A stretch of DNA of 64,000 nt from Flexilinea flocculi. Its GTDB lineage: Bacteria > Chloroflexota > Anaerolineae > Anaerolineales > Anaerolineaceae. Every line of letters starts with the position of its first letter. Position 1 is the first letter of the stretch. A program made the position numbers and the translations under genes. The notes below the pieces were generated by a model, which saw only the letters and a program-made list of their open reading frames with translations, made no database searches and was not told where the DNA came from. Positions 41,767-63,348 of this stretch are shown one piece after another. Where the stretch lies: positions 983,101-1,047,100 of the forward strand of contig NZ_DF968181.1 of NCBI RefSeq assembly GCF_001192795.1. Reading direction: 5' to 3'.

Positions 41767-41800
41767 AAAAAATCGCACATTTCATTGTGCGATTTTTTTT
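41767..41800 (+). terminator. Intrinsic terminator of rpoC
   Basis: ATCGCACA (41772-41779) pairs with TGTGCGAT (41786-41793) around a six-base loop, preceded by an A-run and followed by eight T. It stands about 20 bases after the rpoC stop. Confidence 0.9.
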
Positions 41801-46419: not shown

Positions 46420-46491
46420 TGCGGGGTAGAGCAGTGGCAGCTCGTCGGGCTCATAACCCGGAGGTCATACGTTCGAATCGTGTCCCCGCTA
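46420..46491 (+). tRNA. Initiator tRNA-fMet (anticodon CAT)
   Basis: A full cloverleaf can be folded: acceptor arm TGCGGGG with CCCCGCT, D arm GAGC/GCTC, anticodon arm TCGGG-CTCATAA-CCCGG, variable AGGTC, T arm ATACG-TTCGAAT-CGTGT, discriminator A. The three consecutive G-C pairs in the anticodon stem and the mismatched 1-72 pair (T-T here; C-A in E. coli) are the marks of bacterial initiator tRNA. CCA is not encoded; CTG follows. A near-consensus promoter precedes it and a terminator follows. The recombinase gene directly downstream suggests the 3' end may be an integration target. Confidence 0.93.
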
Positions 46492-46498
46492 CTGAGAG

Positions 46499-46528
46499 AG
46501 AACCAGAGTCCGTCGGGCTCTGGTTTTT
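46499..46528 (+). terminator. Intrinsic terminator of tRNA-fMet
   Basis: AACCAGAG (46501-46508) pairs with CTCTGGTT (46518-46525) around a nine-base loop, followed by a run of T. It begins ten bases after the tRNA end. Confidence 0.85.
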
Positions 46529-46581
46529 CGTTAGCCTGGCGCACAGCGGTAGACATTTTTCCAAAAATGGAGGAATTTCTT

Positions 46582-47595
46582 ATGAACCGCAGTTCGCCGG
46601 GTACGTCAAAATCCAAAGTTTCACTTTCCTTAGCCAAAGCCATCGACGGCTTCCTAAAATTTAAAACAGCAGAGGGATTAAGCCAACGCACAATTACCTC
46701 CTATGAGTTCACTCTTGGTCATTGGTTGAAATACATCGGAGATCGAGAGGTATCGGATATTCAATCTTCCGACCTGACCGGCTACTTGGCCTGGTTGAGA
46801 ACCGAATATAAACCGAGACGGTGGAACGGAAGCTCCGAGCCGCTGTCCGCCAAATCGATCCGAAATGTGTGGGTAACGTTTCGATCCTTTTTCGGATGGC
46901 TGCAAATTGAATTTAAGTTCCCCAATCCTGCAAAAGAAATCACAGCACCCAAGTTTCAAAAACATCCTGTTGAAACATTTTCCAAAGAAGACGTTGAAAA
47001 AATCCTGAAGGCGTGTGTCTATTCCCGCGAATCGCAGACTGAGGAAAGGAAGAAGTTTGTAATGCGCCGGCCGAGTTCCAACCGCGACCAGGCGATTGTA
47101 TTGATGTTGCTGGACACTGGATTGCGAGCAACTGAGTTGTGTTCTTTGATCATCAACGATGTGGATCTCAAGACCGGAAAGGTCACCATTCGTCACGGAG
47201 TGGCAGGTGGAGCAAAAGGCGGTAAAGGACGCACGGTGTACCTGGGTAAGGTTGCGCGAAAAGCGGTTTGGCGTTATCTTGCCAGCCGAGAAGATGGGGA
47301 CGATCCCGACGCCCCCCTCTTCATCAGCCATGCGGATCGAGCTTTCAACAAGGACAGCTTGCGTGTCTTGATCAACCGGTTGGGAGACCGGGCAGAAATC
47401 AAGAAAGCATATCCGCATAAATTCAGGCATACCTTCGCCATCACCTATCTTCGCTCTGGAGGAGATGTTTTTACCCTCCAATCGCTTCTGGGTCATGGAT
47501 CGCTTGATATGGTACGCCATTATGCCCAGATAGCCGAAGTAGATGTGGAACAAGCGCATCGTAAAGCCAGTCCAGCCGATAACATGCGTCTGTAA
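46582..47595 (+). CDS. Tyrosine recombinase / integrase (XerC/D-like)
   Basis: A 337-residue site-specific recombinase. The N-terminal SAM-like core-binding domain (about 15-120, LAKAIDGFLKFKTAEGLSQRT) precedes the catalytic domain. Active-site residues are visible: Arg in LLDTGLRATELCSL, Lys in the GGAKGGKGRTVYL region, His-x-x-Arg in PHKFRHTFAITYL, His in LLGHGSLDMVRHYAQ, and the nucleophilic Tyr in that last motif. GGAGG stands eight bases before the chosen ATG; the longer frame runs back into the tRNA and is rejected. It lies directly downstream of tRNA-fMet and points away from it, a common layout for integrative elements. It ends 11 bases from the next, convergent recombinase. Confidence 0.92.
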   Translation: MNRSSPGTSKSKVSLSLAKAIDGFLKFKTAEGLSQRTITSYEFTLGHWLKYIGDREVSDIQSSDLTGYLAWLRTEYKPRRWNGSSEPLSAKSIRNVWVTFRSFFGWLQIEFKFPNPAKEITAPKFQKHPVETFSKEDVEKILKACVYSRESQTEERKKFVMRRPSSNRDQAIVLMLLDTGLRATELCSLIINDVDLKTGKVTIRHGVAGGAKGGKGRTVYLGKVARKAVWRYLASREDGDDPDAPLFISHADRAFNKDSLRVLINRLGDRAEIKKAYPHKFRHTFAITYLRSGGDVFTLQSLLGHGSLDMVRHYAQIAEVDVEQAHRKASPADNMRL

Positions 47596-47606
47596 CCAAG
47601 AAATCT

Positions 47607-48701
47607 TCATTGAGCCAATTTTCCTGCGATAAACATCAATGCCTTTTTCTGGCTTTCTCTATCAAGATTATTAAGGAAGACCTCAAGCTCATCACCCGGC
47701 GTGGACGTCGCCTTCCCTGACAGCCCGGCAATACGCTCTTGAACATCAGAAGAAAGCATAGGAGCGTAAGTGCTGTCAGTGATCTCGATACTCTCGTGCA
47801 TCAGGTTCATGGAAACCGCTTTGTAATCCGCCATAGTCTGGGCATGAAGTAACCCGTAGACGGCGTGTCCATGCCGGAATTTGTGTGGTGATTTGAAATC
47901 AAGGTTTGCTATGGAAAACAACAACTCCAGGCGTTTTTGAAGCGCCTGAGAACGTGTCTTTCCAGGTTCATCCTGGGAAAGAAACTGATCTCCCCAGGAA
48001 TGCGCGATCGGTGCATACCAGTGACTTGAACCTGGAAGTGACTTTCGAACAATAGCATCCCACTGGCGGACTGGCGCAAGAATATCCGGAATGTTCAATA
48101 GGAAAGTAGTCGCCTTCTTTCCATTCTTGGTATGAACGCCCAGTTCTGGCCATTGGCGAAGTCTGAGATTATCAAGATCAACAGCTTCTATTGGTAATGT
48201 AGTAAAAGCGCTGGCACGCATGCCTGAAAGGAAGAGCATGGCAGCAGCTGCCTTGTCGCGTAATAAGGCCAGGTTATTTTCGGGTACAGGGGTATTGATT
48301 AATTTTTGTACCTCATCCAGAGAAACAAAAACATTCTCCGAAGATAACTGCGGTTGGCGAGGTCGGCGCAAAGTATCAATCCACGAAATAGGAAGATTGT
48401 TCATTTCACGAGGATATGTAACCTTCGCCCAACGGAAAAAGCGTTTACTTGAGTCAATGATCTTCTTTTGGGATGCGCTGGCCAGGGTTCCTTTTCCCTC
48501 CTTACCTGGTAATGAAGCCAGATAGGACGGTAGGGTCGGGCGAATCGTCTGCGCCTGGCGGAAATTCTGATCGTCCGCCCAAAGCAGTAGATGACGCAAA
48601 TAGAATCGATAGCGTTCAACGGAGGCTTGGTTCAACTGCAGAACTTCCTCGAGGTACTTGAGATGTTCTTTGACTTTAAGATAGTTCTGGCGTTCGATCA
48701 C
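47607..48701 (-). CDS. Second tyrosine recombinase-family protein
   Basis: A 364-residue phage-integrase-type protein. The core-binding domain includes NQASVERYRFYLRHLLLWADDQ. The catalytic half has Arg in LSGMRASAFTTLPIEAVDL, His-x-x-Arg in SPHKFRHGHAVYGL, His in LMHESIEITDSTYAPM and the final Tyr there. The loop is longer than in XerC and the family is divergent from the neighbouring recombinase. A GTG at 48701 with GGAG six bases upstream is the likely start; an upstream GTG at 48740 is possible. Its first codons overlap the HTH gene upstream, so the two are co-transcribed and the HTH protein may guide or control the recombinase. Confidence 0.85.
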   Translation of the reverse strand: MIERQNYLKVKEHLKYLEEVLQLNQASVERYRFYLRHLLLWADDQNFRQAQTIRPTLPSYLASLPGKEGKGTLASASQKKIIDSSKRFFRWAKVTYPREMNNLPISWIDTLRRPRQPQLSSENVFVSLDEVQKLINTPVPENNLALLRDKAAAAMLFLSGMRASAFTTLPIEAVDLDNLRLRQWPELGVHTKNGKKATTFLLNIPDILAPVRQWDAIVRKSLPGSSHWYAPIAHSWGDQFLSQDEPGKTRSQALQKRLELLFSIANLDFKSPHKFRHGHAVYGLLHAQTMADYKAVSMNLMHESIEITDSTYAPMLSSDVQERIAGLSGKATSTPGDELEVFLNNLDRESQKKALMFIAGKLAQ

Positions 48702-49092
48702 GATGGGCTCCACGATTAATAACGGCTCCACAGTTTGCACATGTGCCCTTGATTAGGACAAGGTTTCCCTTGATTGGTTGAATCTGAGGAGAAAGTAATT
48801 TGGATGCCTGGTTACAACGCAAACAATAGGCTTCATCTTCGGTTAGCTTTTTAGCTGCTTTTGGCTTGCGTTGGTTGTTGACCCATCTGGCAAACTCTTC
48901 CCCGTTGATCCAGATCCTGTTACGGTTGTCTCTTTGGTGGGGAACATCTATCTGCAACCAATCCCGCAATGTGCTTTCAGCAATATCCAGTTCCTCGCAA
49001 ATTTCACGCGGGGTATACAACATCGGCAATAACCCTGGTGCTTTGATGATGACATTATGCGGTAATTTTGTCCGGTGAATTCTTACTTCCAT
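48676..49092 (-). CDS. HTH (MerR/excisionase-like) and zinc-ribbon DNA-binding protein
   Basis: A 138-residue protein. Residues about 25-75 form a winged HTH resembling helix-turn-helix excisionase domains: TPREICEELDIAESTLRDWLQ, then NRIWINGEEFARWVNNQR. The C-terminal half carries CLRC and CANC spaced like a zinc ribbon (about residues 91-94 and 120-123). AGGAG stands nine bases before the ATG. It overlaps the second recombinase gene. A recombination directionality factor or a local regulator is plausible; neither is proven. Confidence 0.78.
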   Translation of the reverse strand: MEVRIHRTKLPHNVIIKAPGLLPMLYTPREICEELDIAESTLRDWLQIDVPHQRDNRNRIWINGEEFARWVNNQRKPKAAKKLTEDEAYCLRCNQASKLLSPQIQPIKGNLVLIKGTCANCGAVINRGAHRDRTPELS

Positions 49093-50529: not shown

Positions 50530-50946
50530 ATGTCCAACTTTCCGGCCTGGTTTAACAGAGCGTACAAACGATGGAGCCGATCCCAGGCGGGTGAGGAAGA
50601 TTTCATAGCATTTTGTGATCTATTAGGCTATCCACCTTCCAAGGTATTAGGCTGGTTACACGGCGAGTTTTTACCTGAAGGTTCAGAAATTCTGAGTATT
50701 GCAGGGACACTCGGAACAGAGGTTTATTCAACCCTTGGCCTTCCTGCAGTGGATCCTGAATTAATGAAGATTTATCATGCCTTCTCTCATTTGCATGGTG
50801 AGTTTCGAAGTCGTCTGGCTCAGGCACTTTGGGAAGCAGAAAATGAAATAAAAGAGAAGGGTATCTCAGCTGGTTCGCCGGATGCAGGGGGAATACTCAG
50901 TGCTTCATTTACCAAATGGGGTATTGCGCCAAACCCAAAGCAATAA
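50530..50946 (+). CDS. Small XRE-like helix-turn-helix protein
   Basis: A 138-residue protein. Residues about 25-75 (EDFIAFCDLLGYPPSKVLGWLHGEFLPEGSEILSIAGTLG) follow the pattern of phage-repressor-type HTH domains, with the final W-x-x-G and 'iA..lG' phrases. A helical C-terminal part follows (FRSRLAQALWEAENEIKEKG). No clear ribosome site precedes the ATG. It has its own promoter and is separated from the BREX operon by the operator region, so it may be an element-borne regulator of that operon. I cannot name its ligand or target. Confidence 0.7.
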   Translation: MSNFPAWFNRAYKRWSRSQAGEEDFIAFCDLLGYPPSKVLGWLHGEFLPEGSEILSIAGTLGTEVYSTLGLPAVDPELMKIYHAFSHLHGEFRSRLAQALWEAENEIKEKGISAGSPDAGGILSASFTKWGIAPNPKQ

Positions 50947-50970
50947 TCCTGATTTTCATAGCTTATTTGA

Positions 50971-51017
50971 TTAACAACTATCAATAATGAGTATATAATT
51001 TCTTTATACTCATTATT
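50971..51017 (+). promoter_or_regulatory. BREX operon promoter overlapped by a perfect 13-bp inverted repeat
   Basis: TTAACA (50971-50976), a 17-base spacer and TATAAT (50994-50999) form a strong promoter. AATAATGAGTATA (50983-50995) is perfectly complementary to TATACTCATTATT (51005-51017) with nine bases between. The repeat covers the -10 box and the start point, the usual position of a repressor operator. The first gene starts at 51038. Confidence 0.7.
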
Positions 51018-51037
51018 TTGATTTAAAAGAAGGTACT

Positions 51038-51262
51038 ATGGACGATTTTCCACAAGTACTAACGATTGAAGAAGCATCAAAATACCTTCGCATACCTCTA
51101 TCCACACTTTATAAACTTGCGCAGGATGGAAAAATACCATGCCAAAAAGTTGGAAGGCATTGGCGATTTAGAAAAGAAAGGATAGATAACTGGTTGGATG
51201 ATACGATAGCCAAATCAAAAAAACAAACTCCGATTAACAACGAGGAGCAACATGGATGTTGA
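51038..51262 (+). CDS. Excisionase-family helix-turn-helix DNA-binding protein
   Basis: A 74-residue protein made almost entirely of the 'DNA-binding domain, excisionase family' HTH: VLTIEEASKYLRIPLSTLYKLAQDGKIPCQKVGRHWRFRKERIDNWL. The Ser-Thr-Leu-Tyr recognition helix and the Gly-Arg-x-Trp-Arg wing are typical. AGAAGG precedes the ATG. It is the first gene of the BREX operon and overlaps the next gene by 11 bases. I infer an autoregulator that binds the palindrome over the promoter. Known BREX regulators (BrxR) are larger WYL-domain proteins, so this would be a different solution. An excision role with the recombinases is the alternative. Confidence 0.85.
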   Translation: MDDFPQVLTIEEASKYLRIPLSTLYKLAQDGKIPCQKVGRHWRFRKERIDNWLDDTIAKSKKQTPINNEEQHGC

Positions 51263-51761
51263 ATTAGTCGAAAGACTCGCAAAGTTAAGATTAATCATTG
51301 GGTATCTTGGGGAACGGGAACAGTTTGGTTGGTGGCAGAGTTCGTTTTTTACACAAGGAAGTAATGCTTTCCTTTCTCCGCTTTTTAGCAGAACGCAAGT
51401 CTTAGCTCAATGTAATGGCGTAACGCATGCCGCAGCTTTAGTGCATGACGAGCGTATTGGCATAGGTCATGTTTATCATCTATTTCGACTACCAGAAGAG
51501 ATTGAGCAAGGAATCCACCGATCGCTCCATGAGCCGGCTTTATTCCAATCAGTTCAAAAGAATATTACCAAATCAGAAATAGCTTTGGATTTCTTGCGCA
51601 AGTTAACTGGACCCCAATTACCAACTGAGGTCGGTCCAATCCGAGTTGGAAACATCGTGGCATTGCGCGATACAAATTCTTGGCAGAAAGTAGCCGGCGC
51701 ATACTTGTATGGTTTTGAACAAGATACCATGATCTGCCCCTATTTTTCAGATCCCTTATGA
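51252..51761 (+). CDS. brxE: BREX protein BrxE-like
   Basis: A 169-residue soluble protein. The opening LRLIIGYLGEREQFGWWQSSFF, the central VTHAAALVHDERIGIGHVYHLFRLPEEIEQG and the length agree with the BrxE family as I recall it. BrxE is a small protein of unknown biochemical role found in type 6 BREX loci. GAGGAG stands four bases before the ATG, and the stop overlaps the brxA start (ATGA). The position between the HTH gene and brxA matches that of brxE in type 6 loci. The identification is from memory of the family pattern; a profile search is needed to be certain. Confidence 0.65.
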   Translation: MDVELVERLAKLRLIIGYLGEREQFGWWQSSFFTQGSNAFLSPLFSRTQVLAQCNGVTHAAALVHDERIGIGHVYHLFRLPEEIEQGIHRSLHEPALFQSVQKNITKSEIALDFLRKLTGPQLPTEVGPIRVGNIVALRDTNSWQKVAGAYLYGFEQDTMICPYFSDPL

Positions 51762-52543
51762 CAACTACTTCCTACTCTTCAATGCTTAATGCCGGTATAG
51801 GTATGATAGATGCGACTCGCACAATGCTCAATTTGTGGCAGCCTGGGATGAGCGGTGTTGATCTTTATAAAGCTGCGCTAGAATCGGGATTGTTCCCCAA
51901 TATTACTGCGCGACGCCTACAGAACTTCATCAAGGAATGTTTCGGCCCCCGATATTTGGTGAATAAAGGCGGCCCATCGAAAATACTTAAAACAATTGAA
52001 TCTACTTTCTCAAGCCGAGAATTTAATCAATTACTGTTTATATACACTTGCCGTGAAAGTCGAATTCTTAATGATTTTGTTCGGGATGTATATTGGGGTG
52101 CATATAGTTCAGGTAGAGAAACAATTTCAAACGAAGATGCTCTTCTTTTTGTAATTCGAGCCAATCAAGATGGAAAAACTGTTAAACCATGGTCAGAAAT
52201 TACGCTGTCAAAAGTAGCTGGATACTTAACGGCTTCATGTGCTGATTTTGGTTTGCTCGAAAATGGACAAAGAAGTATCCGGAAAATACTACCATTTCGA
52301 ATTGAATCGAGATTGGGTATTCTGCTGGCCTATGATCTTCATTTTTCCGGTCATGGTGACAATAGCGTACTTAGCCATTCGGATTGGGGATTATTTGGTT
52401 TGGATCGAAGTGATGTATTGAATGAATTGAAACAGCTAGCCTTAAAAGGTTGGTTTATTATTCAATCCGCTGGAGATGTGACTCGAATAGGCTGGCAATA
52501 CCAGAGTATGGAGGAAGTAATCGATGCCCTCAATAAGAGATAA
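51758..52543 (+). CDS. brxA: BREX protein BrxA (DUF1819)
   Basis: A 261-residue protein of the DUF1819 family. The family's opening is recognisable: YSSMLNAGIGMIDATRTMLNLWQPGMS, followed by FPNITARRLQNFIKECFGPRYL. The rest is helical, with SWDDVL-like text absent and a C-terminal winged segment (LNELKQLALKGWFIIQSAGDVTRIGWQY). BrxA is known structurally as a small DNA-binding helical protein in type 1 BREX. It overlaps brxE by four bases and brxB by 20, so translation is coupled. Its exact part in host DNA methylation or phage exclusion is unresolved in the field. Confidence 0.88.
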   Translation: MTTTSYSSMLNAGIGMIDATRTMLNLWQPGMSGVDLYKAALESGLFPNITARRLQNFIKECFGPRYLVNKGGPSKILKTIESTFSSREFNQLLFIYTCRESRILNDFVRDVYWGAYSSGRETISNEDALLFVIRANQDGKTVKPWSEITLSKVAGYLTASCADFGLLENGQRSIRKILPFRIESRLGILLAYDLHFSGHGDNSVLSHSDWGLFGLDRSDVLNELKQLALKGWFIIQSAGDVTRIGWQYQSMEEVIDALNKR

Positions 52544-53096
52544 CTTCGACGAATTGATGGAACGTGTTCGATCTGGTCGAGAATTAGGACACGCCAGTTT
52601 TGAACCAATCTATTATTTAATTTTCCATCCCAAGGAAATTCTGGATGTGAAGAGGAGCCTGCCAGCCTGGATCGCAAAACTGCGCAATGATGGTTGGGAC
52701 GTTGAGCAGTTTTCTATCGCCCAGGAAATTCGTTCCATATTAGACAGTGCTCCGATGATGAAAATCTGGTTGACCGCGGATAAAAAATCGCCTCTCCAGT
52801 GGGATAAAGCCAATCAATCTTTGGCCAATGCCATTACAAATGGCTCGTTAAAAAGTCGATTAGAGAATAAGCTGGAACAGGTGAAAGGTAAAAAGAGCAC
52901 GATTATTCTTGTCACAGATCTCGAAGCACTTCATCCTTATACTCGCATTGGTGCAATCGAGAGTCAATTGTACGGAAAATTCTATGTGCCTACCGTGTTC
53001 TTTTACCCAGGTGAACGTACCGGAAAGACGCGATTGAAATTCCTGGGTTTTTATCCAGAAGATGGCAATTATCGCTCCGTTCATATCGGCGGCTAA
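52524..53096 (+). CDS. brxB: BREX protein BrxB (DUF1788)
   Basis: A 190-residue DUF1788 protein. Family features are IYYLIFHPKEILDVKRSLPAWIAKLRNDGWDV (about residues 28-60), TIILVTDLEALHPYTRIGAIES (about 118-140) and VPTVFFYPGERTGKTRLKFLGF (about 148-170), ending in Tyr-Arg-Ser. GGAGGAAG is placed six bases before the ATG. It overlaps brxA by 20 bases. BrxB is needed for methylation and defence in studied type 1 systems, but its biochemical function is not known. Confidence 0.92.
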   Translation: MPSIRDNFDELMERVRSGRELGHASFEPIYYLIFHPKEILDVKRSLPAWIAKLRNDGWDVEQFSIAQEIRSILDSAPMMKIWLTADKKSPLQWDKANQSLANAITNGSLKSRLENKLEQVKGKKSTIILVTDLEALHPYTRIGAIESQLYGKFYVPTVFFYPGERTGKTRLKFLGFYPEDGNYRSVHIGG

Positions 53097-53108
53097 AAAG
53101 GAGTGTCA

Positions 53109-56100
53109 GTGGCTATGCAGATCAAAACATTATTTGACCCATCAAAAGACATCTATCGCAACATCGAAAAGGTGATCACATATAACGCTTCGCAAGAAGT
53201 TCGTCTAAAAGCGGAAATCACCGAATACATTGTTACTGAAAGCATTGAAGATCAGTTCGAACGGTTGCTGACCAAAATGCAACAGGCGATGGATAGTGGC
53301 GGCGAGAATGAGGTAGGTGTATGGGTTTCTGGCTTCTACGGTTCTGGTAAGTCGTCCTTCACGAAATATCTTGGCTTAGCATTAGACCAGAGCGTGCAAA
53401 TTGAAGGGACGCGGTTCTTGAAATATTTACAAGACCGTATGAACAAACCCCAGACGAGAGCGTTGTTATCTACGGTGGCTAATCGCTTTCCGGCAGCGGT
53501 TGTTCTTCTCGATCTGGCAAGTGAAATGCTGGCCGGCGCAACGATGGAGGAAGTCTCAACTGTTCTTTATTATAAAGTTCTGCAGTGGGCTGGCTATTCG
53601 CGAAATCTAAAGGTAGCAGCATTTGAAAGACGGTTGAAAAAAGACAACCGTTATGAGGAGTTCACAAGCCGGATTCAAAACGACCTCGGTGTTTCCTGGA
53701 AAGAAGTTCAAAACGATCCTTTAGTGATTGACAGCTTAATCCCAGAAATTGCACACGATCTTTATCCCCAGTTATTCAAAACGGCCAGTGCCTTTAATAC
53801 CGAAACCACCGATTTCGTCCGTTTTGAAAATGAACGTGTCAAAGAAATGATTGATATTGTTCATGAGGCAACGGGAAAAGAATACATTGTTTTTATCATT
53901 GATGAAGTAGGTCAATATGTCAGCTCACGTCCAAACCTGATCTTGAATCTGGATGGGTTGGCAAAGAACCTGAAGAATATCGGCAACGGTAAAGTGTGGA
54001 TCCTCGGAACTGCACAGCAAACCCTTACCGAAGATGATCCACGCGCATCTTTAAACTCACCCGAATTGTATAAACTCAAGGATCGTTTTCCAATCCAGAT
54101 CGACCTTGAATCCAGCGATATCCGCGAAATTTGTTACCGCCGTTTATTGGGAAAATCACCGGATGGGGAAAAGACCCTTGGCGCAATCTTCGAAAAGCAT
54201 GGTCAGGAGTTACGATTTAATACCAAACTCGAAGATGCCAAATATTACGACGCAGACTTCGATAAGGTTACATTCACTAATCTCTATCCTTTTTTACCGG
54301 CCCATTTTGACATCTTGCTGCACCTTTTAGGCGCTCTGGCTAAATCTACAGGCGGAATTGGACTTCGTTCAGCTATTAAAGTGATCCAGGATATCCTGAT
54401 CGAAGGCCCGGATGGTCAACCACCTGTAGCGAATCAACCGACCGGTTGGTTGGCCACAACGGTTACATTATATGATGCGCTTGAAAAAGACATACGCCGC
54501 GCTGCCCCATCCATTCATAAAGCGGTTGCAAAGGCTCTCATTCGCTTCCCTGATTCGGCAATTCATCAGGAAATCGCCAAAACAGTAGCGATTCTTCAAA
54601 TATTGGGGAACATGCCAGTTACAGTCCAAAATATTGCGGGTCTTACTCATCCTACGGTTGATGCAGCATCGCGCCATGATGCAGTCGAATCGGCTGTCAA
54701 GGATCTCATCTCTGATGGATTTGTTCCTTTTGGTGAAAAAGATGGGAATCTGTGCTTTTTCAGCGAAAAGATTAATGATATCGATCAGGAACGGGCGCAA
54801 ATTCCCTTACGTTCGATTGAAACCCGGCGGATTCAAAATGAGGGGTTGCGAGAGGTGTTCAGCCCACTTCCCTCTGTCCGGCTGCACAACACTCTCTCCG
54901 TAACCTCCGGGTTGAAATCATCTACCGGGTCTATCCTGACGAATCTTGCCGGCGAGAAGGAAACGATTCAAACCGTGGTGGAATTAGTCGCTCCTGAGGA
55001 TTATGAGGGAGCCCGTACCCGCCTGGTTGAGGAATCTCGTCAGCGTAGTTCGCAATACACGATCTATTTATTGGGAAGAACGGTCAGCGAGATCAACGAT
55101 CTGGTATCCGAAATTTACAGAAGCCGTGAAATTGTTCAACGATATCGTAATGACCCAGATCAGGAAGTTAAGGAATATTGTTCAGCCCAGACCGACCGCG
55201 CAAATGTTTTATCCGGAGACTTGGAGCATTTGTTGAAAAACTGCTTAAGCCAGGGATCCTTTATCTTCCGCGGTCAGGTAACGGCAGCAGACAGCCTGGA
55301 TCATGACCTGGTTGAAGCGGCGAAAAAGCATTTAAGCACAGTGGCCGAACAAGTCTTTGATCGCTACAATGAGGCGCCCGTCAGAGCAGATACGAATATT
55401 GCCGAAAAATTCCTGAAAGCCGGCAATTTAAAAGCAATCGACTCCAACATCGATCCGCTCTCTCTCGTCCAGGTGGTGGGTGGAACGCCTCGCATCAATA
55501 CCAATCATAAAGCTCTGATCAGCATTCGAGACTTCATCGACCGCAATGGCTCAGTGGATGGGAAACGTCTGACCGATTATTTTACCGATGCGCCTTTTGG
55601 CTGGTCTCCAGATACCTTACGCTACCTGGTGGCAGCATTACTGGTCAACGGAGAAATCAAGCTTAAAATCTCCGGGCGGGAAATTAAAGTCAATGGTCAA
55701 CAGGCAATCGAAGGCCTGCGCACCAATAATTCATTCAAAACAGTGGGGATTTCACTTCGCGATGGACAGCTTCCACTCGAGGTGCTTGCACGCGCGGCAC
55801 AACGCCTGACCGATCTGACCGGTGAACCTACCATACCGCTGGAACAGGAAATCAGTAAATCAGCAGCGAAGCACTTTCCACAATTACAGTTGAAATACGG
55901 TCCCTTGGATTCAAAGTTGGAGAACCTGGGGCTGCCAGGTGTGGAGCGCATTCGTGAGCTCAATAAAGATCTGGCGGAGATTTTGGAAACCGATGCCTCA
56001 GATGTCCCGCAGCGATTGGGAAGCGAAGAATCCTCACTCTTTACGAGCCTCAAATGGGCAGCAGATGTAACCCTGGCGCTCAAAAACGGGCTAGAGGTGA

Positions 56101-56735
56101 CAATCCGCGACCTGCGTGAGCATTGGAAGGAGATCAAAGCATTACCGGATTCAGGAATACCAGGTCAGCTCAAAAACGACGTTGAGGAATCGCTTGGCCA
56201 AATTGGTGAACGTCTGGGTCAGGAAAATTTCTACCAGCACAGCGCCGACCTAAGCTCTACACTTACCTCAATCAAGAATCATTTACGTGACGCGATTGTT
56301 CAGATGGTGGATGCGCAAAAAAGTACGATTAAGGTGGCTAAGCAAGATCTACCAGGGTTGTTTGAATGGAACGAATTGACGCACGAAGAACAATCTCAGA
56401 TACTGGCGCAGTTAGAAGCTTTGGCTGTTGAAGTGGATAAGAATTTGGCAGGATTGAAACAACTCCTTGGTCAGGAATATACCATCCAATCACGGGTTAG
56501 CGGCGTACGCAATAAAATTGAGGAAGTCGGGCATGAACGACAATTGGCACGTTTGAAAGAAGAGAAGGAACAGGCTGCTCGTGAGGGACACAGTCGAATT
56601 ACCCGATCTTTGAATATTCCTACCAGGGTGACCAACAGCAGTCAATTGGATACCTTGATCCAACAGCTTCAGACTCTGAAGACCGAATTGGCACTCTACA
56701 ATGACATTGAAGTAACCATAGAACTGAAGGATTGA
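53109..56735 (+). CDS. brxC: BREX protein BrxC, large P-loop ATPase
   Basis: About 1208 residues, the normal BrxC size (DUF6079-like/PglY-related ATPase). Walker A is GFYGSGKSSF at about residues 75-84, and Walker B is YIVFIIDEVGQYV at about 259-271. LGTAQQTL, then FPIQIDLESSDIREICYRRLLGKS, follow as sensor elements. The C-terminal 250 residues contain coiled coil (LARLKEEKEQAAREG). AAGGAG at 53098-53103 favours the GTG at 53109; the ATG at 53115 is the alternative, and the GTG at 53103 overlaps the ribosome site. The gene follows brxB by 12 bases. BrxC is thought to couple ATP hydrolysis to assembly of the BREX complex on DNA. Confidence 0.93.
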   Translation: MAMQIKTLFDPSKDIYRNIEKVITYNASQEVRLKAEITEYIVTESIEDQFERLLTKMQQAMDSGGENEVGVWVSGFYGSGKSSFTKYLGLALDQSVQIEGTRFLKYLQDRMNKPQTRALLSTVANRFPAAVVLLDLASEMLAGATMEEVSTVLYYKVLQWAGYSRNLKVAAFERRLKKDNRYEEFTSRIQNDLGVSWKEVQNDPLVIDSLIPEIAHDLYPQLFKTASAFNTETTDFVRFENERVKEMIDIVHEATGKEYIVFIIDEVGQYVSSRPNLILNLDGLAKNLKNIGNGKVWILGTAQQTLTEDDPRASLNSPELYKLKDRFPIQIDLESSDIREICYRRLLGKSPDGEKTLGAIFEKHGQELRFNTKLEDAKYYDADFDKVTFTNLYPFLPAHFDILLHLLGALAKSTGGIGLRSAIKVIQDILIEGPDGQPPVANQPTGWLATTVTLYDALEKDIRRAAPSIHKAVAKALIRFPDSAIHQEIAKTVAILQILGNMPVTVQNIAGLTHPTVDAASRHDAVESAVKDLISDGFVPFGEKDGNLCFFSEKINDIDQERAQIPLRSIETRRIQNEGLREVFSPLPSVRLHNTLSVTSGLKSSTGSILTNLAGEKETIQTVVELVAPEDYEGARTRLVEESRQRSSQYTIYLLGRTVSEINDLVSEIYRSREIVQRYRNDPDQEVKEYCSAQTDRANVLSGDLEHLLKNCLSQGSFIFRGQVTAADSLDHDLVEAAKKHLSTVAEQVFDRYNEAPVRADTNIAEKFLKAGNLKAIDSNIDPLSLVQVVGGTPRINTNHKALISIRDFIDRNGSVDGKRLTDYFTDAPFGWSPDTLRYLVAALLVNGEIKLKISGREIKVNGQQAIEGLRTNNSFKTVGISLRDGQLPLEVLARAAQRLTDLTGEPTIPLEQEISKSAAKHFPQLQLKYGPLDSKLENLGLPGVERIRELNKDLAEILETDASDVPQRLGSEESSLFTSLKWAADVTLALKNGLEVTIRDLREHWKEIKALPDSGIPGQLKNDVEESLGQIGERLGQENFYQHSADLSSTLTSIKNHLRDAIVQMVDAQKSTIKVAKQDLPGLFEWNELTHEEQSQILAQLEALAVEVDKNLAGLKQLLGQEYTIQSRVSGVRNKIEEVGHERQLARLKEEKEQAAREGHSRITRSLNIPTRVTNSSQLDTLIQQLQTLKTELALYNDIEVTIELKD

Positions 56736-56741
56736 TCCATT

Positions 56742-59700
56742 ATGGCATTTGATCAAACCACCCGCAACCGTCTGGCCCGTTTCGTCAGCGATGCCCGCGC
56801 CCTCTTGACTGAAGAATTTACCCGCCAGCTACAGAATGAATATGGGCTTGATCCAGCCAGTGGAGAAGTTACTCCCACTGAAAGATTAACGGCATTGGAT
56901 GATCGCCAGCGTGAGACGGCACGGATAATCCGTGAAACCCTGGATTACTATCTGGCAGGAAATTCACAAGCAGATGCGAAAGCTTTCCATGATGTACTGG
57001 ATCGCATCGTGCGCGAACAGGCGTTTACAGTTCTCAACCGGTTGTGCGCTTTGCGCATGTCCGAAGCGCGTGGGCTGGTTTTAGAATCGATTGCCAAATG
57101 TTACCAGTCGAAAGGCTTTCTACTCTACGCTCGTCTGGCGGGCAGTGCACTGGGAGAAACCGGTGAATCCTACCGCATGTATCTCTTCAGTTTGATGGAT
57201 GAATTTGCTATGGAACTGCCGGTTCTGTTTGACCGTTTCAGCCCGCAGGGACGGCTCTTCCCCCGCGAGGCCGTGCTGTTAAAACTCCTGGAGTTGATTA
57301 ACGACGCGGAGATCGATTCGCTGTGGACCGAGGACGAGACCATCGGTTGGATTTACCAGTATTTCAACAGCAAAGAAGAACGCAAAGCCATGCGGGACGC
57401 TTCGTCAGCTCCGCGCAACAGTCGTGAGCTGGCAGTACGCAACCAGTTTTTCACCCCGCGTTATGTGGTGGAATTCCTCACCGATAACACTCTGGGGCGC
57501 ATCTGGTACGAGATGACCAAAGGCGAGACGGCGCTCAAAGATACCTGCCGCTACCTGGTGCGCCGTCCTACCGAAATATTCTTGAAAGAGGGAGAACAAG
57601 CACCAGAGCAGTCCAAAACCGATGAGAACCTCTCGCAGGAAGACCTGCTCCGTCAACCGGTATATATTCCTCCCCGCCCTCTGAAGGACCCGCGTGAGAT
57701 TAAGATGCTGGACCCAGCCTGCGGCTCGATGCACTTTGGTCTGTATGCCTTCGACCTCTTTGAGCAGATTTATGCAGAAGCCTGGAAGCTGGAAGAACGA
57801 CTGGGCGAAGACGCCCTGCAGCGATTGGCAGATCTGGATTCGCTGCATAAAACCTACCCGGATGAAGAAACTTACCTGAAGGATGTGCCGCGCTTGATCA
57901 TCGAGCGCAACATCCACGGAGTGGATATTGACCCGCGTGCGGTGCAGATTGCCGGGCTGAGCCTGTGGCTGCGTGCTCAGAAGAGCTGGCAAACCAAGGG
58001 GCTGCGCCTCAGCGAACGACCGCAAATTCGCAAATCCAACGTGGTGTGCGCCGAACCCATGCCCGGTGACCGGCAGATGTTGGATGAATTTTTGAGTACG
58101 CTGAGCGGAGATGGGTTGGAAACGTTGATGCGCAAAGCCTGGCATGTACCTACCGACCAGAAAGTGCGCGCCACACCGCAGATGGCAGATGCCCTGGCAA
58201 AACTGGTGCGCACTGTTTGGCAGGAAATGGAACTGGCCGGCGAAGCCGGCAGCCTGCTGAAAATTGAAGAAACACTGCGCGATGCGATTGCCACAGCTCG
58301 TAAGGAATCCGAGGAAAAATCACCGCTCTTCCGTGTTTTGGAATATGGGTTGAATGAACCCCCGAAAGAGAAGTATGTGCAGGTGGTAGCGGGTGAAGAC
58401 CAGGATTTCTTTGACCAGGCGGAAGGATTAGTGCTGGCTGCGCTTCGTGAATACAGTGAACAAGCGGTAAACGGCGATAGTTATAAGCGTCGTTTGTTTG
58501 CAGGGGATGCATCACAAGGATTTGTCTTTATAGACTTATGTAGAAAGCTCTATGACATAGTAGTAATGAATCCCCCATTTGGCGAGTTGTCTGAAATAGC
58601 TCAAGAATATTTAACAAATAAATATCCACTTACTTGCAATAATATTGCCACTATATTTGTTGAGAGAATGGCTAATAAACTAAATCCTATGGGTGGATTG
58701 GCTTTAATCATTGATAATTCAACCTCTATACGATCATCATATGAAGATTTTCGGAAGACTATTCTTTATAATTCCTTATGTTTATATACATATGCTTCTT
58801 TAGGGTGGGAAGTGCTTGATGCAAATGTTGAGGTATGTGCTTATTCTTGTTTTAGAACAGCTACTGAAAAAGGCAACTGTTTCTGTGTAGATGCGTCTAA
58901 AAAAGAAACTAAAGAAAATTTTCTTAAGGAAAACATATTATCCATTTCTCAAGGAAAGAAAAATCAGTTTGTTATTGTTAACCCAGAAGAATTTAAATTT
59001 CTTCCAAATGCAATCCCCAATTTTTCAATGCCTAGAGGAATAAGATCACTATTTGGAAAATTTCCGTCCGTTAACAATTTGGCTCACCTTAAGACAGGAA
59101 TGAGCAGTGGTGATAACGAAAGATTCTATAAAATGTTTTGGGAAAGACCTCAACGATTTGAAAATGACTGGAAATTTCTTTCAAATGGCGGAGAGTATTC
59201 TCCATACTATCGTGGTGATAGGGAGATAATTAATTGGCATCGAGATGGTATCGAAATTAAAGAACATAGAAAAGCGACTTTCAGAAATAGTCAATATTAT
59301 TCTCGGGTTGGTTTGAGTTATTCTAAACGCTGTGAATATTTGTCTGTTCAGCTCCTTCCATCTGGATTCGCTTTTACTGATGAGGGACAATGCATTTTCC
59401 CAGTCTCAGAAGAAAATAGATATGGCTTATTGGCTTTCTTTAACTCAAAGTTCGCTCGGGTTATCCTTAACGAATATTGCGGTCAGCATAAATCTAATGG
59501 ATATGTGCAACTTATCCCGTTTCCAAATATTAATCTAAGTATTTTAGGTAAGATCTCTAATAATATTGTCCAGATACTGTACTCTGAACTTATATGGACA
59601 ATACCTTCTATATATTCTCGTGGACCATTATTATTAAATCCGGCAATTTTTGAAACAAATTTATCGATCAATGAAATTCGTTCAAATTTGATAAGAAAAT

Positions 59701-60839
59701 GGGAATTATCAAAGGTAAAAATTGATGAATACGAAAATACATTAAATATGATGATTTATGAAAGTAGTGGATTAAACGAAAATGAAGTTAACTATATAAA
59801 TAATAAGGCAAAAAAGATCCCCGCAGCTCATTTTCAACTTTCAGAACAAAAGACTGATGGGTACTCATTGGTATCTGAATTTCTTGATTACATAATGGGT
59901 GTGTTTTTTGGTTATTGGAATATTTTAAGTATTAAAGAGCCAATAGAAGTACCTCTAGATACTGCGCCAATTTATCCACCAGGAACAGTGTATAAGGGAA
60001 AGCCATTGGCGTCTAATAATATTCCTGATTTCTACCCAGTAAATGTTAAATGGTCAGGAATTGCTGAAAGTCAAACTCCAATTGAAAAAGAGAGTTTACC
60101 AAATAAACTAGAGGAGATTCTCAGGATTATTTGGAAAGAAAAATTGGAAGGCATTGAATTGGAAATTTCCGAATCATTAAAGATTTCATCCATGGATGAG
60201 TACTTTGGAAATCCAGATTTGTTCTTCAAAGATCATTTAAAGCGTTATTCGAAAAGTCGTCGGGCTGCGCCCATCTACTGGCCGCTTTCCACTCCTTCGT
60301 GCTCTTACACTCTTTGGTTGTACTATCACCGGCTGAATGATCAGACTCTCTACACCTGCGTCAACGACTTTGTCGATCCCAAGCTCAAGCAGGTGTCCGA
60401 AGAAGCTGCCCGCCTGCGTCTGAAGAAAGGCCGCAGCGCTGCGGATGAAAAAGAGTTGGAGCGCCTGACGGACTTCGAGCGCGAATTGAAAGATTTCCGC
60501 GAAGAATTGCTGCGCGTGGCGAAGTTCTGGAAACCGAATCTCAACGATGGCGTCGAAATCACCGCTGCTCCGCTATGGAAGCTGTTCCAGCACAAACCCT
60601 GGCAGAAACGCTTAAAAGAAACCTGGCAGAAGTTGGAAGCCGGCGAATACGACTGGGCGCACCTGGCTTACTCCATCTGGCCGGAACGCGTGCGCGAAAA
60701 ATGCAAGAACGATAAATCACTGGCAATTGCGCACGATTTAGAAGAATTGTATGTAGAGCCGCCGGCATCCGCTAAAAAGAAAAAAGCCAAAAAACCAGCA
60801 GTTGATGAAGAGACAGAAGGTTGGTTCAATGACGATTAA
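56742..60839 (+). CDS. pglX: BREX DNA adenine methyltransferase PglX (BrxX)
   Basis: A 1365-residue methyltransferase that marks host DNA at a short non-palindromic site, adding a methyl group to N6 of adenine. The SAM motif is MLDPACGSMHFGLYAFDLF at about residues 322-340. Catalytic motif IV is YDIVVMNPPFGE at about 603-614, the NPPF form typical of N6-adenine enzymes. The N-terminal 230 residues are helical. Residues about 583-1170, from just before NPPF through the target-recognition region, are encoded by markedly AT-rich DNA, unlike both flanks. The C-terminal 190 residues are charged and end in a Lys-rich tail. The gene starts six bases after brxC and overlaps pglZ by 11 bases. The recognition sequence cannot be read from the protein. 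Confidence 0.95.
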   Translation: MAFDQTTRNRLARFVSDARALLTEEFTRQLQNEYGLDPASGEVTPTERLTALDDRQRETARIIRETLDYYLAGNSQADAKAFHDVLDRIVREQAFTVLNRLCALRMSEARGLVLESIAKCYQSKGFLLYARLAGSALGETGESYRMYLFSLMDEFAMELPVLFDRFSPQGRLFPREAVLLKLLELINDAEIDSLWTEDETIGWIYQYFNSKEERKAMRDASSAPRNSRELAVRNQFFTPRYVVEFLTDNTLGRIWYEMTKGETALKDTCRYLVRRPTEIFLKEGEQAPEQSKTDENLSQEDLLRQPVYIPPRPLKDPREIKMLDPACGSMHFGLYAFDLFEQIYAEAWKLEERLGEDALQRLADLDSLHKTYPDEETYLKDVPRLIIERNIHGVDIDPRAVQIAGLSLWLRAQKSWQTKGLRLSERPQIRKSNVVCAEPMPGDRQMLDEFLSTLSGDGLETLMRKAWHVPTDQKVRATPQMADALAKLVRTVWQEMELAGEAGSLLKIEETLRDAIATARKESEEKSPLFRVLEYGLNEPPKEKYVQVVAGEDQDFFDQAEGLVLAALREYSEQAVNGDSYKRRLFAGDASQGFVFIDLCRKLYDIVVMNPPFGELSEIAQEYLTNKYPLTCNNIATIFVERMANKLNPMGGLALIIDNSTSIRSSYEDFRKTILYNSLCLYTYASLGWEVLDANVEVCAYSCFRTATEKGNCFCVDASKKETKENFLKENILSISQGKKNQFVIVNPEEFKFLPNAIPNFSMPRGIRSLFGKFPSVNNLAHLKTGMSSGDNERFYKMFWERPQRFENDWKFLSNGGEYSPYYRGDREIINWHRDGIEIKEHRKATFRNSQYYSRVGLSYSKRCEYLSVQLLPSGFAFTDEGQCIFPVSEENRYGLLAFFNSKFARVILNEYCGQHKSNGYVQLIPFPNINLSILGKISNNIVQILYSELIWTIPSIYSRGPLLLNPAIFETNLSINEIRSNLIRKWELSKVKIDEYENTLNMMIYESSGLNENEVNYINNKAKKIPAAHFQLSEQKTDGYSLVSEFLDYIMGVFFGYWNILSIKEPIEVPLDTAPIYPPGTVYKGKPLASNNIPDFYPVNVKWSGIAESQTPIEKESLPNKLEEILRIIWKEKLEGIELEISESLKISSMDEYFGNPDLFFKDHLKRYSKSRRAAPIYWPLSTPSCSYTLWLYYHRLNDQTLYTCVNDFVDPKLKQVSEEAARLRLKKGRSAADEKELERLTDFERELKDFREELLRVAKFWKPNLNDGVEITAAPLWKLFQHKPWQKRLKETWQKLEAGEYDWAHLAYSIWPERVREKCKNDKSLAIAHDLEELYVEPPASAKKKKAKKPAVDEETEGWFNDD
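58490..60255 (+). other. AT-rich mosaic block inside pglX (target-recognition region)
   Basis: Base composition changes sharply. The 60-base row from 58561 has 20 G+C and that from 58741 has 15, whereas rows around 57901 are close to 60 percent G+C. Composition returns to the higher level near 60255. The reading frame is unbroken. The block covers motif IV and the region that recognises DNA in PglX proteins, as expected if specificity segments are swapped by recombination between conserved ends. Confidence 0.75.
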
Positions 60840-63348
60840 AAACTTCATCCAAAAAGAAATATTTTTGCCACGCCTCAAACAAAATGGGGTGTTGGTTGTG
60901 TATGACCCCGACCAGCGCTACCACGAGCTGTGTTTGGAGCTGAACGCTGAAAAACTGCGTGTCATCGATACATCCGAAAGCAGCATCACCAGCCGCTTTG
61001 CTGCACTGGAAGCACTCAATGAGTTTGGCCAGCCCAACCCATCCCTTGAGGGTATCCTGGTGTATGTTCCCGCCAAGTCGCCAATCACGGATGAGGAAAA
61101 ACAACGCGATCCGTTTGCCATTTACGGCGCTTGCGGCTCTGTCTTTCCAGAAGGAGATGGGGATGAATTCCTCAGTCTTTGCTTGAAAGCACGCGCGGAT
61201 TATGCTACGGAAATCCGCCGGATTTTTAAGGACAATCCTAATCCCGGTTTTGCGGTCATTGACGCCGTTGGCGGAGGAGCAGGCTGGCCGAACCTGCAGG
61301 CAATGCTGAAAGTCGAATCGGCTCGCGATATTTTATTTGTTTTGCTAACACCCTCCGAAGCGCAAAAAGAGACTCTCAAAACACAGGCCAGTTGGGTAAC
61401 TGAGGCCACAGCATTGTTCCAAAGCGCTTTGGGCCTGAACTTGAAAACCAAAATGAAAACCTGGAATGCGGTTGCAGATGAGCTGTGGCGATTCCTGCTT
61501 TTTAGCGAATTTGTTTTCGACCTGCCAAGTGACCTGCCGGTAGCTCTGACGACTGTTCCTTGTGCCCCTCAAGAAGCACTTCACCTGGTGGAAGATCTGT
61601 GCGACCGATTACGCAATGATCGGCGCACCCAGGCTTTTTACATTGAACGAGCTGAGGGAATTGAAAAAGACCTAAACCTGCCAGCAATTTGCGAGAAAAT
61701 TGATGATTTCGGTGTTCGGGACACCTTCCCATTTGAAGAGCGTGCTTGTTTCAACCAGGCAGTCGATGCGTTGAAACGAGATAATATCGACAGACTGCGC
61801 AGTGTTCTCAATCGCCACGAACAATCTGTCTGGGTCAGCCGGGGTGAAAACCAGGCACAGTGGGCTTTACTCCATTCGGCTGCTAGCTTGGCGCAGGCTT
61901 GCGAAGACTCCGACCGCCAGCTATCTGAGCACACCCGTACATTGGATACCTTGTTGGATTTTTACACCAACAATATCCGTGAAGTAGATCGCATCCAGCG
62001 TGAATTTGAACAGGCCGCTGGAGATCTCCTCGATTCAGGGGGTGCATCAATTGAGGTGATCAGTCAAACGCGTTCTACTTATCGAAAATTAATCGATAAG
62101 GTTCACGGGATTTTCGTACGCCATATCGAAAAATCCGGCTGGCCGATATCGGGACGCTTATCGAATGCAGATGTGTTTGATAAATTGGTAGCACCGAAAT
62201 TACTTGAAAGCGGTCGGCGCGTGGCTTATCTGTTGATCGATGCCATGCGTTATGAACTCGGTGTTGAGTTAGCAAAGCACTTGAACGAAGCTGGGCAAAT
62301 TGATGTTCAGATGGCTTGCGCTCAGATGCCTACAGTCACACCCGTTGGGATGGCGACACTGTTACCCGGGGCCGGTCAAAACCTAAAAATTATGAATAAG
62401 GATAATCAGTTGTTGGTCGTATTCGGTGACCAGCCATTAGCCACCGTCGCTCAACGCATGGATGTGCTGCGTAAAAAGTATGGGCAGCGTTTTGCAGAAA
62501 TGGAACTGGTCCGGTTTGTCCGCGATCATCCTAAGATCGAGAATACTGTTGAACTTCTGGTCATTCGTAGTAATGACATGGATAATGATTTTGAAGCCAA
62601 TCCAGAAGCGGCTCCAGGATTAATCAGTCGTACCTTCCAAAAAATCCGTTCAGCTATTTATAAATTGCGTGATTTGGGATTTCAGGATGTCATCATTGCC
62701 ACCGATCATGGCTTTTTCCTGAATACAGCCATTGAGCCAGGCGATGTGTGCGCTAAACCATCAGGGAAATGGATCAATGTCCACGAGCGAACACTGCTCG
62801 GTGATGGGGTAGGCGATACATCCAACCTGGTTCTACCCTCTGAAATGTTGGGGATTCGAGGGGAGTATAGCCAGGTAGCAATTCCACGAGCTTTGGTATC
62901 GTACCGGGCTGGGCAATGGTATTTCCACGGCGGGCTTTCGCTTCAAGAAGCGATTGTACCCGTCATCGCAGTAAAGATTCGCGCTGCAGAGATTGGAATT
63001 GGCAGCAAACTTTCGGTGATGTTGAATTACAAGCGAGGGTCCAAAAAGATCACCACCCGATTACCAGTCATCGAAGTTGAAGCTGGAGCTTCGGATCTCT
63101 TTGCCCAGGAAACAGAGTTGTTAATAGAAGCTTACGATGTAAAAGGGCATGTTGTTGGCGAAGCGAAACCTGGCGGCCCGGTTAACCCGGCGACCAGAAT
63201 CATAATGCTAAAACCAGGGGACACCATTCCAATTACACTAAAAATGGATATGGATTTTGAGGGAAAATTTGTAGTAAAAGCGCTCGACCCCATTACGCAA
63301 ACAGCCATGGGAAAACCACTTGAATTAGAAACGGACTATACGGTGTAA
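60829..63348 (+). CDS. pglZ: BREX protein PglZ (BrxZ), alkaline-phosphatase superfamily
   Basis: A protein of about 839 residues, the usual type 1 PglZ length. The PglZ domain is clear in the second half: RVAYLLIDAMRYELGVELAKHL at about 464-485, with the metal-binding Asp, then AQMPTVTPVGMATLLPGA; IIATDHGFFL at about 622-631 gives the second metal site. The N-terminal part is helical and contributes to complex assembly. I chose the ATG at 60829 (AGAAGG eight bases upstream) rather than the upstream Met codons at 60802. It overlaps pglX by 11 bases and ends two bases before brxL. PglZ is essential for BREX; nuclease activity has been reported for related proteins. Confidence 0.95.
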   Translation: MTIKNFIQKEIFLPRLKQNGVLVVYDPDQRYHELCLELNAEKLRVIDTSESSITSRFAALEALNEFGQPNPSLEGILVYVPAKSPITDEEKQRDPFAIYGACGSVFPEGDGDEFLSLCLKARADYATEIRRIFKDNPNPGFAVIDAVGGGAGWPNLQAMLKVESARDILFVLLTPSEAQKETLKTQASWVTEATALFQSALGLNLKTKMKTWNAVADELWRFLLFSEFVFDLPSDLPVALTTVPCAPQEALHLVEDLCDRLRNDRRTQAFYIERAEGIEKDLNLPAICEKIDDFGVRDTFPFEERACFNQAVDALKRDNIDRLRSVLNRHEQSVWVSRGENQAQWALLHSAASLAQACEDSDRQLSEHTRTLDTLLDFYTNNIREVDRIQREFEQAAGDLLDSGGASIEVISQTRSTYRKLIDKVHGIFVRHIEKSGWPISGRLSNADVFDKLVAPKLLESGRRVAYLLIDAMRYELGVELAKHLNEAGQIDVQMACAQMPTVTPVGMATLLPGAGQNLKIMNKDNQLLVVFGDQPLATVAQRMDVLRKKYGQRFAEMELVRFVRDHPKIENTVELLVIRSNDMDNDFEANPEAAPGLISRTFQKIRSAIYKLRDLGFQDVIIATDHGFFLNTAIEPGDVCAKPSGKWINVHERTLLGDGVGDTSNLVLPSEMLGIRGEYSQVAIPRALVSYRAGQWYFHGGLSLQEAIVPVIAVKIRAAEIGIGSKLSVMLNYKRGSKKITTRLPVIEVEAGASDLFAQETELLIEAYDVKGHVVGEAKPGGPVNPATRIIMLKPGDTIPITLKMDMDFEGKFVVKALDPITQTAMGKPLELETDYTV

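What the first reader, a model, noticed from the sequence alone, without database searches (positions are those of the whole stretch)
50971..51262. Local control module of the BREX operon: palindrome over the promoter plus an excisionase-like HTH gene
A perfect 13-bp inverted repeat covers the -10 box and start point, and the first gene encodes a 74-residue HTH protein. Known BREX control uses WYL-domain BrxR proteins; none is visible here. A tiny excisionase-like repressor would be a different mode and could link defence expression to element excision or mobility.
Basis: partly seen in the sequence, partly recalled or inferred. Interest (0 to 1): 0.58.

Follow-up and report, generated by a model that had tools for sequence, protein, structure and literature searches.

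The report
Small regulator gene heading BREX operon
A phage-defence operon on a mobile DNA island begins with a promoter inside a long palindrome and a tiny DNA-binding protein gene that probably acts as its local switch, a place that some sister operons give to an unrelated regulator; it is an unusual but not a wholly new arrangement.

Summary
In detail: a perfect 13-bp inverted repeat (50983-50995 / 51005-51017) lies over the predicted promoter, 20 bp before a 74-aa HTH_17 ("excisionase family") gene that overlaps brxE. 0 of 5000 shuffles match it. In 5 of 5 close relatives with this promoter the repeat is 12/13.

"Local control module" is supported. In 19 brxE-type BREX loci examined, the slot before brxE holds HTH_17 in 9 (four lineages), cut by a contig end in 1, apparently broken in 1, a WYL protein in 3, nothing recognised in 5. 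The 6 other loci found whose HTH is at least about 55% identical all head defence genes, including BREX-1, BREX-3 and, on a tandem neighbouring island, BREX-4.

"Excision link" is not supported: the operon sits on a tRNA-Met-integrated island, but the island's recombinase module has its own HTH gene.

Open: whether this HTH binds this palindrome. More distant HTH-led BREX operons lack it, the nearest solved folds (RdfS, BldC; weak matches) bind head-to-tail rather than on palindromes, and an XRE-like gene just upstream is a rival owner. New variant of a known kind: self-regulated defence operons.

The parts
50971..50999 (+). Predicted sigma-70-type promoter: TTAACA, 17 bp, TATAAT
   Evidence: consensus scan only
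50983..50995 (+). Arm 1 of the inverted repeat, in the -35/-10 spacer
51005..51017 (+). Arm 2 of the inverted repeat, at the expected start point
   Evidence: mismatch at 51015 in 5 of 5 relatives
51038..51262 (+). 74-aa HTH_17 protein gene, proposed local regulator
51252..51761 (+). brxE
   Evidence: BrxE_fam 160.5 bits, cut-off 40
51758..52543 (+). brxA
52524..53096 (+). brxB
53103..56735 (+). brxC
56742..60839 (+). pglX, BREX-1 type by its model
   Evidence: 726.5 bits, cut-off 500
60802..63348 (+). pglZ; passes none of the type-specific NCBIfam cut-offs
63351..64000 (+). brxL, first part; runs on beyond the window (whole gene L017:452-2530)
50530..50946 (+). 138-aa XRE-like protein gene directly upstream, rival owner of the palindrome
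   Evidence: HTH_3 only in a 31% identical homologue
46420..46492 (+). tRNA-Met and left attachment repeat of the island (repeat from 46450)
46480..47595 (+). int1, tyrosine recombinase
47607..48740 (-). int2, tyrosine recombinase
48676..49092 (-). HTH protein of the recombination module (HTH_17 25.1 bits, under cut-off 27), likelier directionality-factor candidate

Best explanation
The stretch is the self-regulating head of a BREX-1-like operon (HTH-brxE-brxA-brxB-brxC-pglX-pglZ-brxL) carried as cargo by a tRNA-Met-integrated island. The 74-aa winged HTH protein is made with BREX and most likely acts back on its own promoter, probably as a repressor that sits on the inverted repeat over the -35/-10 spacer and the start point and keeps RNA polymerase off. 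The arm centres are 22 bp apart, about two helical turns, so two bound units would lie on one face. Shown: the repeat, the promoter-like boxes, gene order and overlap, recurrence of HTH_17 in this slot, WYL proteins in the same slot of sibling operons, and close relatives of the HTH at the head of other defence operons. Inferred: that this protein binds this repeat, that the effect is repression, and that some unknown signal releases it.
For: Repeat and promoter geometry, not expected by chance in this stretch. The core repeat occurs once in the 3.5-Mb genome at up to 3 mismatches; in 121 genomes of the order every other site has 3 mismatches, at about the level of the reversed-pattern control. 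Slot census of 19 brxE-type loci: HTH_17 in 9 (four lineages), cut by the contig end in 1 (L023), apparently broken in 1 (L091), WYL in 3, none recognised in 5. The 6 other loci found whose HTH is at least about 55% identical to this one all head defence genes: BREX-1 (G104), BREX-3 brxF-brxC (G664), BREX-4 (own genome), type I REase (G402), D12 methylase (G737), DrmD-like helicase (L117). The HTHs before brxE in L095 and in the Thioflavicoccus plasmid pass the curated cut-off of the MADS regulator model MAD1 and L018 narrowly misses it (80.9, 81.7, 78.7 bits against 80). Precedents: BrxR and RptR are encoded first, repress their own defence promoter and bind repeats near or over the -10 (passages; discussion section).
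Against: No binding or expression data. The palindrome is found only in one close group: the best inverted repeats upstream of the HTH in L018, L095, L062, L021 and L067 score 6. HTHs in the same slot are not all alike: L018, L062 and L095 are 35, 39 and 27% identical to the window's over 46-60 aa. 5 of 19 loci have no recognised regulator in the slot. The nearest solved structures are RdfS and BldC by fold (E 0.03 or more, not significant) and Tn916 excisionase by sequence (E 0.026, not significant); BldC and RdfS assemble head-to-tail, and BldC lacks a dimerisation domain (passages and abstract); the 74-aa model has a single C-terminal helix. 5 of 5 relatives break the outer part of the repeat. 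An XRE-like gene lies directly upstream. The motif TWATGAG/CTCATWA occurs in 5 of 22 HTH promoters, but it was picked after looking.
Confidence: 0.55

Rival explanations
1. The palindrome belongs to another regulator, most likely the XRE-like protein encoded directly upstream (50530-50946) or another island or host factor; the HTH_17 protein acts elsewhere or binds other bases of the promoter.
For: The XRE-like gene ends 36 bp before the repeat, is on the same strand and is present in 5 of 5 close relatives that cover it. Its homologue in G216 has an HTH_3 domain (28 bits, cut-off 23), a class that as a rule binds palindromes (recalled). BldC/RdfS-type proteins assemble head-to-tail.
Against: The protein itself hits no Pfam family and its fold model is poor (mean pLDDT 54.9). 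It is absent upstream of other HTH-led BREX operons as far as seen; the G216 homologue is not beside BREX and has no such repeat. It was found in 2 of 386 class genomes, the own one included.
Confidence: 0.2
2. The HTH protein binds the promoter but activates, or both activates and represses by dose as C proteins of type II RM do.
For: The same position (first gene) is used by C proteins (recalled; described in the passages and discussion of PMC12255303). MerR-like relatives can activate (recalled).
Against: The repeat covers the start point and the promoter boxes are near consensus with 17-bp spacing, which suits a block better than help.
Confidence: 0.12
3. The HTH is the island's excisionase (directionality factor), perhaps with an added regulatory role, so that BREX expression and excision are linked.
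For: The operon is on an island integrated at tRNA-Met with two tyrosine recombinases. The nearest fold match is the ICE directionality factor RdfS (E 0.029, not significant), which also regulates transcription (passages); the nearest solved sequence is Tn916 excisionase (E 0.026).
Against: The recombination module has its own HTH gene, 57% conserved with int in the next island. No half-site of the repeat at up to 3 mismatches lies between 43646 and 50687, the stretch with the attachment site and int genes. Related HTHs precede BREX on a plasmid and other contigs where tblastn with int1 and int2 found nothing (a weak negative). 1 of 50,697 phage records matches at E 1e-5.
Confidence: 0.06
4. 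The palindrome is no operator: a chance or structural repeat, or an RNA hairpin in transcripts from further upstream.
For: Five other perfect repeats with arms of 13 or more lie in the 64 kb. As single-stranded DNA the stretch folds better than 199 of 200 shuffles. The repeat is not kept in distant HTH-led operons.
Against: 0 of 5000 shuffles of the stretch; no change in the 20 core-arm bases in 5 relatives, though 3-5 changes in 91 bp are too few for a test; with the predicted start only arm 2 would be transcribed.
Confidence: 0.07

Closest known systems
BrxR / CapW WYL-domain repressors of BREX and other defence islands (PMC9122589, PMC9122601; passages seen)
   Same: First gene of the operon; inverted repeat near the promoter's -10; WYL proteins occupy the same slot before brxE in L092, L094, L102
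   Different: No WYL domain, 74-aa winged HTH only; repeat arms 13 bp with 9-bp spacer against 11 bp with 5-bp spacer in pEFER
MAD1 of the MADS defence system (NCBIfam NF047737; MADS paper not seen)
   Same: HTH_17 protein named as part of a defence system; the BREX HTHs of L095 and L062 pass its cut-off, L018 nearly
   Different: The window's HTH scores 58.1 against 80; the operon is BREX
RptR, small repressor of type I RM islands (PMC12255303; abstract, passages, discussion)
   Same: Tiny sensor-less regulator, first ORF, palindromes over the -10
   Different: Four-helix, bZIP-like dimer on 6-bp TAGCTA sites; a different fold by the paper's description
BldC (PMC5859096, abstract) and RdfS (PMC11963761, passages)
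   Same: Same winged-HTH fold and size class; best fold matches, weak
   Different: Head-to-tail multimers, BldC on direct repeats; BldC is a developmental regulator, RdfS a directionality factor of an ICE

Membership tests
BREX type 1 operon | brxA, brxB, brxC, pglX, pglZ, brxL together | tested here: met
   PglX passes the BREX-1 cut-off (726.5 against 500). brxE is an addition, and PglZ passes no type-specific cut-off (best 184.4 against 400, type 6)
BREX type 6 | type-6 BrxE, PglX and PglZ over their cut-offs | tested here: not met
   BrxE_6 34.6 against 80, PglX_6 334.3 against 900, PglZ_6 184.4 against 400; helicase genes of type 6 not searched for
BrxR/CapW WYL regulators | WYL domain with winged HTH | tested here: not met
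   74-aa protein hits HTH_17 only
HTH_17 / 'excisionase family' DNA-binding domain | score over curated cut-off | tested here: met
   62.6 against 27; 62.8 against 28.8
MAD1 of MADS | NF047737 over its cut-off | tested here: not met
   58.1 against 80
Excisionase / directionality factor | belongs to the int module and steers excision | tested here: inconclusive
   Same island, but outside the int module, which has its own HTH; activity not testable
Autogenous operon repressor | binds its own promoter and lowers its expression | not testable with these tools
   Position and repeat are compatible
RptR | TAGCTA repeats and all-helical four-helix fold | tested here: not met
   Model has beta strands and a winged HTH; TAGCTA is not in 50947-51037 (sequence)

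The most novel reading that the evidence does not exclude
A BldC/MAD1-type mini winged-HTH family is a plug-in switch for defence operons in general: exchangeable with WYL regulators in one BREX slot, shared by BREX types 1, 3 and 4, type I RM and DrmD-like systems, and able to cross-control the two different BREX operons (BREX-1-like and BREX-4) that sit on tandem tRNA-Met islands in this genome.
Probability: 0.35. Interest if true: 0.6.

Novelty: new variant of a known kind. Interest (0 to 1): 0.45.

Why it matters
How BREX and other defence operons are kept quiet until needed is known for few systems; WYL repressors cover only part of them. A sensor-less 74-aa protein in the same slot poses a clear question: what releases it? 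If one small HTH family controls many unlike defence systems, including two BREX operons in one cell, that gives a handle for finding and switching defence operons and a way to test whether stacked islands are regulated together.

Tried and rejected
Excision link: considered seriously once the operon proved to lie on a tRNA-Met island with two ints, then set low because the recombination module has its own HTH gene.

Conservation of the palindrome as proof of function: the close loci are too alike. There are no changes in the 20 core-arm bases, but only 3-5 in the whole 91-bp stretch, too few to claim constraint.

Operator in more distant relatives: no comparable palindrome. Among less related HTH genes some do have strong ones of other sequence, for example L046 and L075. 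The TWATGAG motif is post hoc (5 of 22 promoters, one of them a second member of the window's group).

Upstream XRE-like gene as palindrome owner: its one other homologue found has no such repeat, its fold model was too poor to search, and a viral-contig scan with it gave no relative. Not excluded.

Slot census: my first count had 16 loci; re-checking added L019, L103 and L155, all without a recognised regulator. 'None recognised' rests on tblastn with the HTH and WYL queries and reading ORFs; for L155 on its annotation only. I left the odds as they were, since four lineages and the WYL exchange are untouched. L108 (a brxC fragment at a contig end, no brxE match) and other distant BREX loci without a brxE match (L020-L022, L029, L104-L107, L109, L111-L115; L110 and L116 not compared) were dropped before the count.

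Literature: ten searches. None listed a paper on an HTH_17 or excisionase-like BREX regulator; most subscription papers are not held. In the BREX landscape paper PMC12839542 I saw passages only: 'excisionase', 'MerR' and 'repressor' 0 times, BrxR once, in the reference list; its text mentions a small zinc-finger, HTH-like protein near the type-4 cysteine desulfurase.

Empty site in the same-genus genome G176: its gyrA-like region was fetched and scanned for tRNA and the attachment repeat without a find, and not compared further.

Full report
What is there. The intergenic stretch 50947-51037 holds a perfect inverted repeat, AATAATGAGTATA - 9 nt - TATACTCATTATT (50983-51017), and a promoter-like pair TTAACA-17-TATAAT at 50971-50999. 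Arm 1 fills part of the spacer and touches the -10 box; arm 2 begins about at the expected start. 0 of 5000 dinucleotide shuffles of the 91 bp give arms this long, although five other repeats with arms of 13 bp or more exist in the 64 kb. The ORF 51038-51262 (74 aa) is HTH_17 / TIGR01764 and overlaps brxE by 11 nt. The operon goes on with brxE, brxA, brxB, brxC, pglX, pglZ and brxL. The core pattern AATGAGTATA-N9-TATACTCATT occurs once in the 3.51-Mb genome at up to 3 mismatches. In 121 genomes of the order 10 have a match, all sites but the window's with 3 mismatches; the reversed control matches in 8.

Close relatives. The one genome-collection scan gave 7 loci: 6 near copies (best BrxC segment 90-100% identical), among them Levilinea saccharolytica KIBI-1 and Leptolinea sp. 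HRD-7, and 1 distant BREX. Five of the six cover the promoter. All five keep the inner ten pairs and the -10 box; four have TTAGCA for the -35 TTAACA; all five have C instead of A at 51015. Promoter and HTH gene are 96-99% identical to the window (from the counts), so this is a weak test of function.

The slot before brxE. I examined 19 brxE-type loci: the window, L018, L019, L023-L028, L060/L062, L061, L091-L095, L102, L103 and L155 (L096-L101 are stretches of six of these contigs). HTH_17 genes precede brxE in 9: the window, L024-L028, L018, L095 and the Thioflavicoccus mobilis plasmid, where the gene is not in the plasmid's gene table. These are four lineages, and the HTHs of L018, L062 and L095 are only 27-39% identical to the window's. 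L023 starts inside the HTH gene. In L091 HTH-like fragments are visible by eye in two frames. L092, L094 and L102 have a 304-307-aa WYL protein there instead; these are 76-96% identical to each other, so perhaps one event. In L019, L061, L093, L103 and L155 I recognised no regulator. HTH_17 and WYL proteins thus occupy one position in otherwise like operons, which is the strongest evidence that the HTH regulates BREX.

The same HTH family elsewhere. Besides the near copies, the sampled genome searches and a viral scan gave six loci whose HTH is at least about 55% identical to this one, and all six head defence genes: BREX-1 in G104, BREX-3 brxF-brxC in G664, BREX-4 in the own genome (brxC, pglZ, brxL, brxP and a DndA/SspA-like cysteine desulfurase, after a 1176-aa protein), a type I restriction gene in G402, a D12 methylase in G737, and a DrmD-like helicase in viral contig L117. 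Less similar homologues are mixed; many are fused to response-regulator domains (read from sequence) or precede unrelated genes. Of 14 plasmid contexts opened, 2 head type I RM, 4 SNF2-type helicases (3 with a methylase next), 1 a DUF499-SIR2 cluster, 3 the hsp20-clpK heat-resistance locus, and 4 are unclear. One of 50,697 phage records matches at E 1e-5. The HTHs before brxE in L095 and L062 pass the MAD1 cut-off; the window's does not.

Mobility context. A tRNA-Met gene (46420-46492) holds an exact repeat of more than 40 bp that recurs 77.3 kb and 107.3 kb further on. Each of the first two copies is followed by a tyrosine recombinase. int1 is 57% identical between them, int2 matches only in part (31% over 121 aa), and the HTH protein beside int2 is 57% identical over 87 aa. 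So two islands lie in tandem, one with the BREX-1-like operon, the next with BREX-4, each operon headed by a related HTH (about 55% identical). The first island carries ParA-, DnaA- and secretion-ATPase-like genes; transfer was not tested. The module's own HTH is the natural directionality-factor candidate (inference).

How it most likely works. The gene is read with the operon; its product would bind the repeat and block the promoter, giving low expression until released. Shown: anatomy, recurrence, slot exchange. Inferred: binding, sign, release. Two facts speak against the simplest form. The closest solved folds by Foldseek are RdfS and BldC (E 0.03 or more), and the nearest solved sequence is Tn916 excisionase (E 0.026), none significant; RdfS and BldC assemble head-to-tail, BldC on direct repeats (passages; abstract). 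And HTH-led BREX operons outside the close group show no comparable palindrome. The XRE-like gene just upstream is a real alternative owner.

Known or new. Promoter-proximal repressors encoded first in defence operons are known: BrxR (passages) and RptR (abstract, passages, discussion). An HTH protein is a named part of MADS (NCBIfam). The ten literature searches listed no description of an HTH_17 regulator of BREX. I rate this a new variant of a known kind. The exchange of HTH_17 and WYL in one slot, and two BREX operons with related HTHs on tandem islands, are worth following; the palindrome by itself is ordinary operator anatomy.

Noticed in passing
46420-46492 and G000:C3:1106860, G000:C3:1136808: Two islands integrated in tandem at tRNA-Met, carrying a BREX-1-like and a BREX-4 operon, each headed by a related HTH_17 gene.
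   Followed up: partly
51758-52543 (brxA) and about 58600-60200 (inside pglX): Mosaic divergence between otherwise similar operons: much of brxA falls to about 61-69% DNA identity in L023, L024, L025, L027 and L028, and an internal part of pglX does not align in five of six relatives (L023 ends before it), as for a swapped specificity region.
   Followed up: partly
L092:2427-3341, L094:1356-2270, L102:3169-4092: WYL-domain regulator genes in the slot that HTH_17 fills in the window; the best inverted repeats in the 200 bp upstream score only 5-6.
   Followed up: partly
33562-33613, 11573-11623, 3784-3824, 33813-33860, 41767-41798: Other perfect inverted repeats (arms 20, 20, 15, 14 and 13 bp) in the window, not examined.
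   Followed up: no
L146:13142-16672 (-): 1176-aa protein between the HTH gene and brxP of the BREX-4 operon, with RNA polymerase alpha-CTD and sigma-70 region 4 matches.
   Followed up: no
L063, L064, L065 (plasmids): The hsp20-clpK heat-resistance locus is headed by an HTH_17 gene of the same family; in L063 an 8-bp palindrome TCTTGCAA-4-TTGCAAGA precedes it.
   Followed up: no
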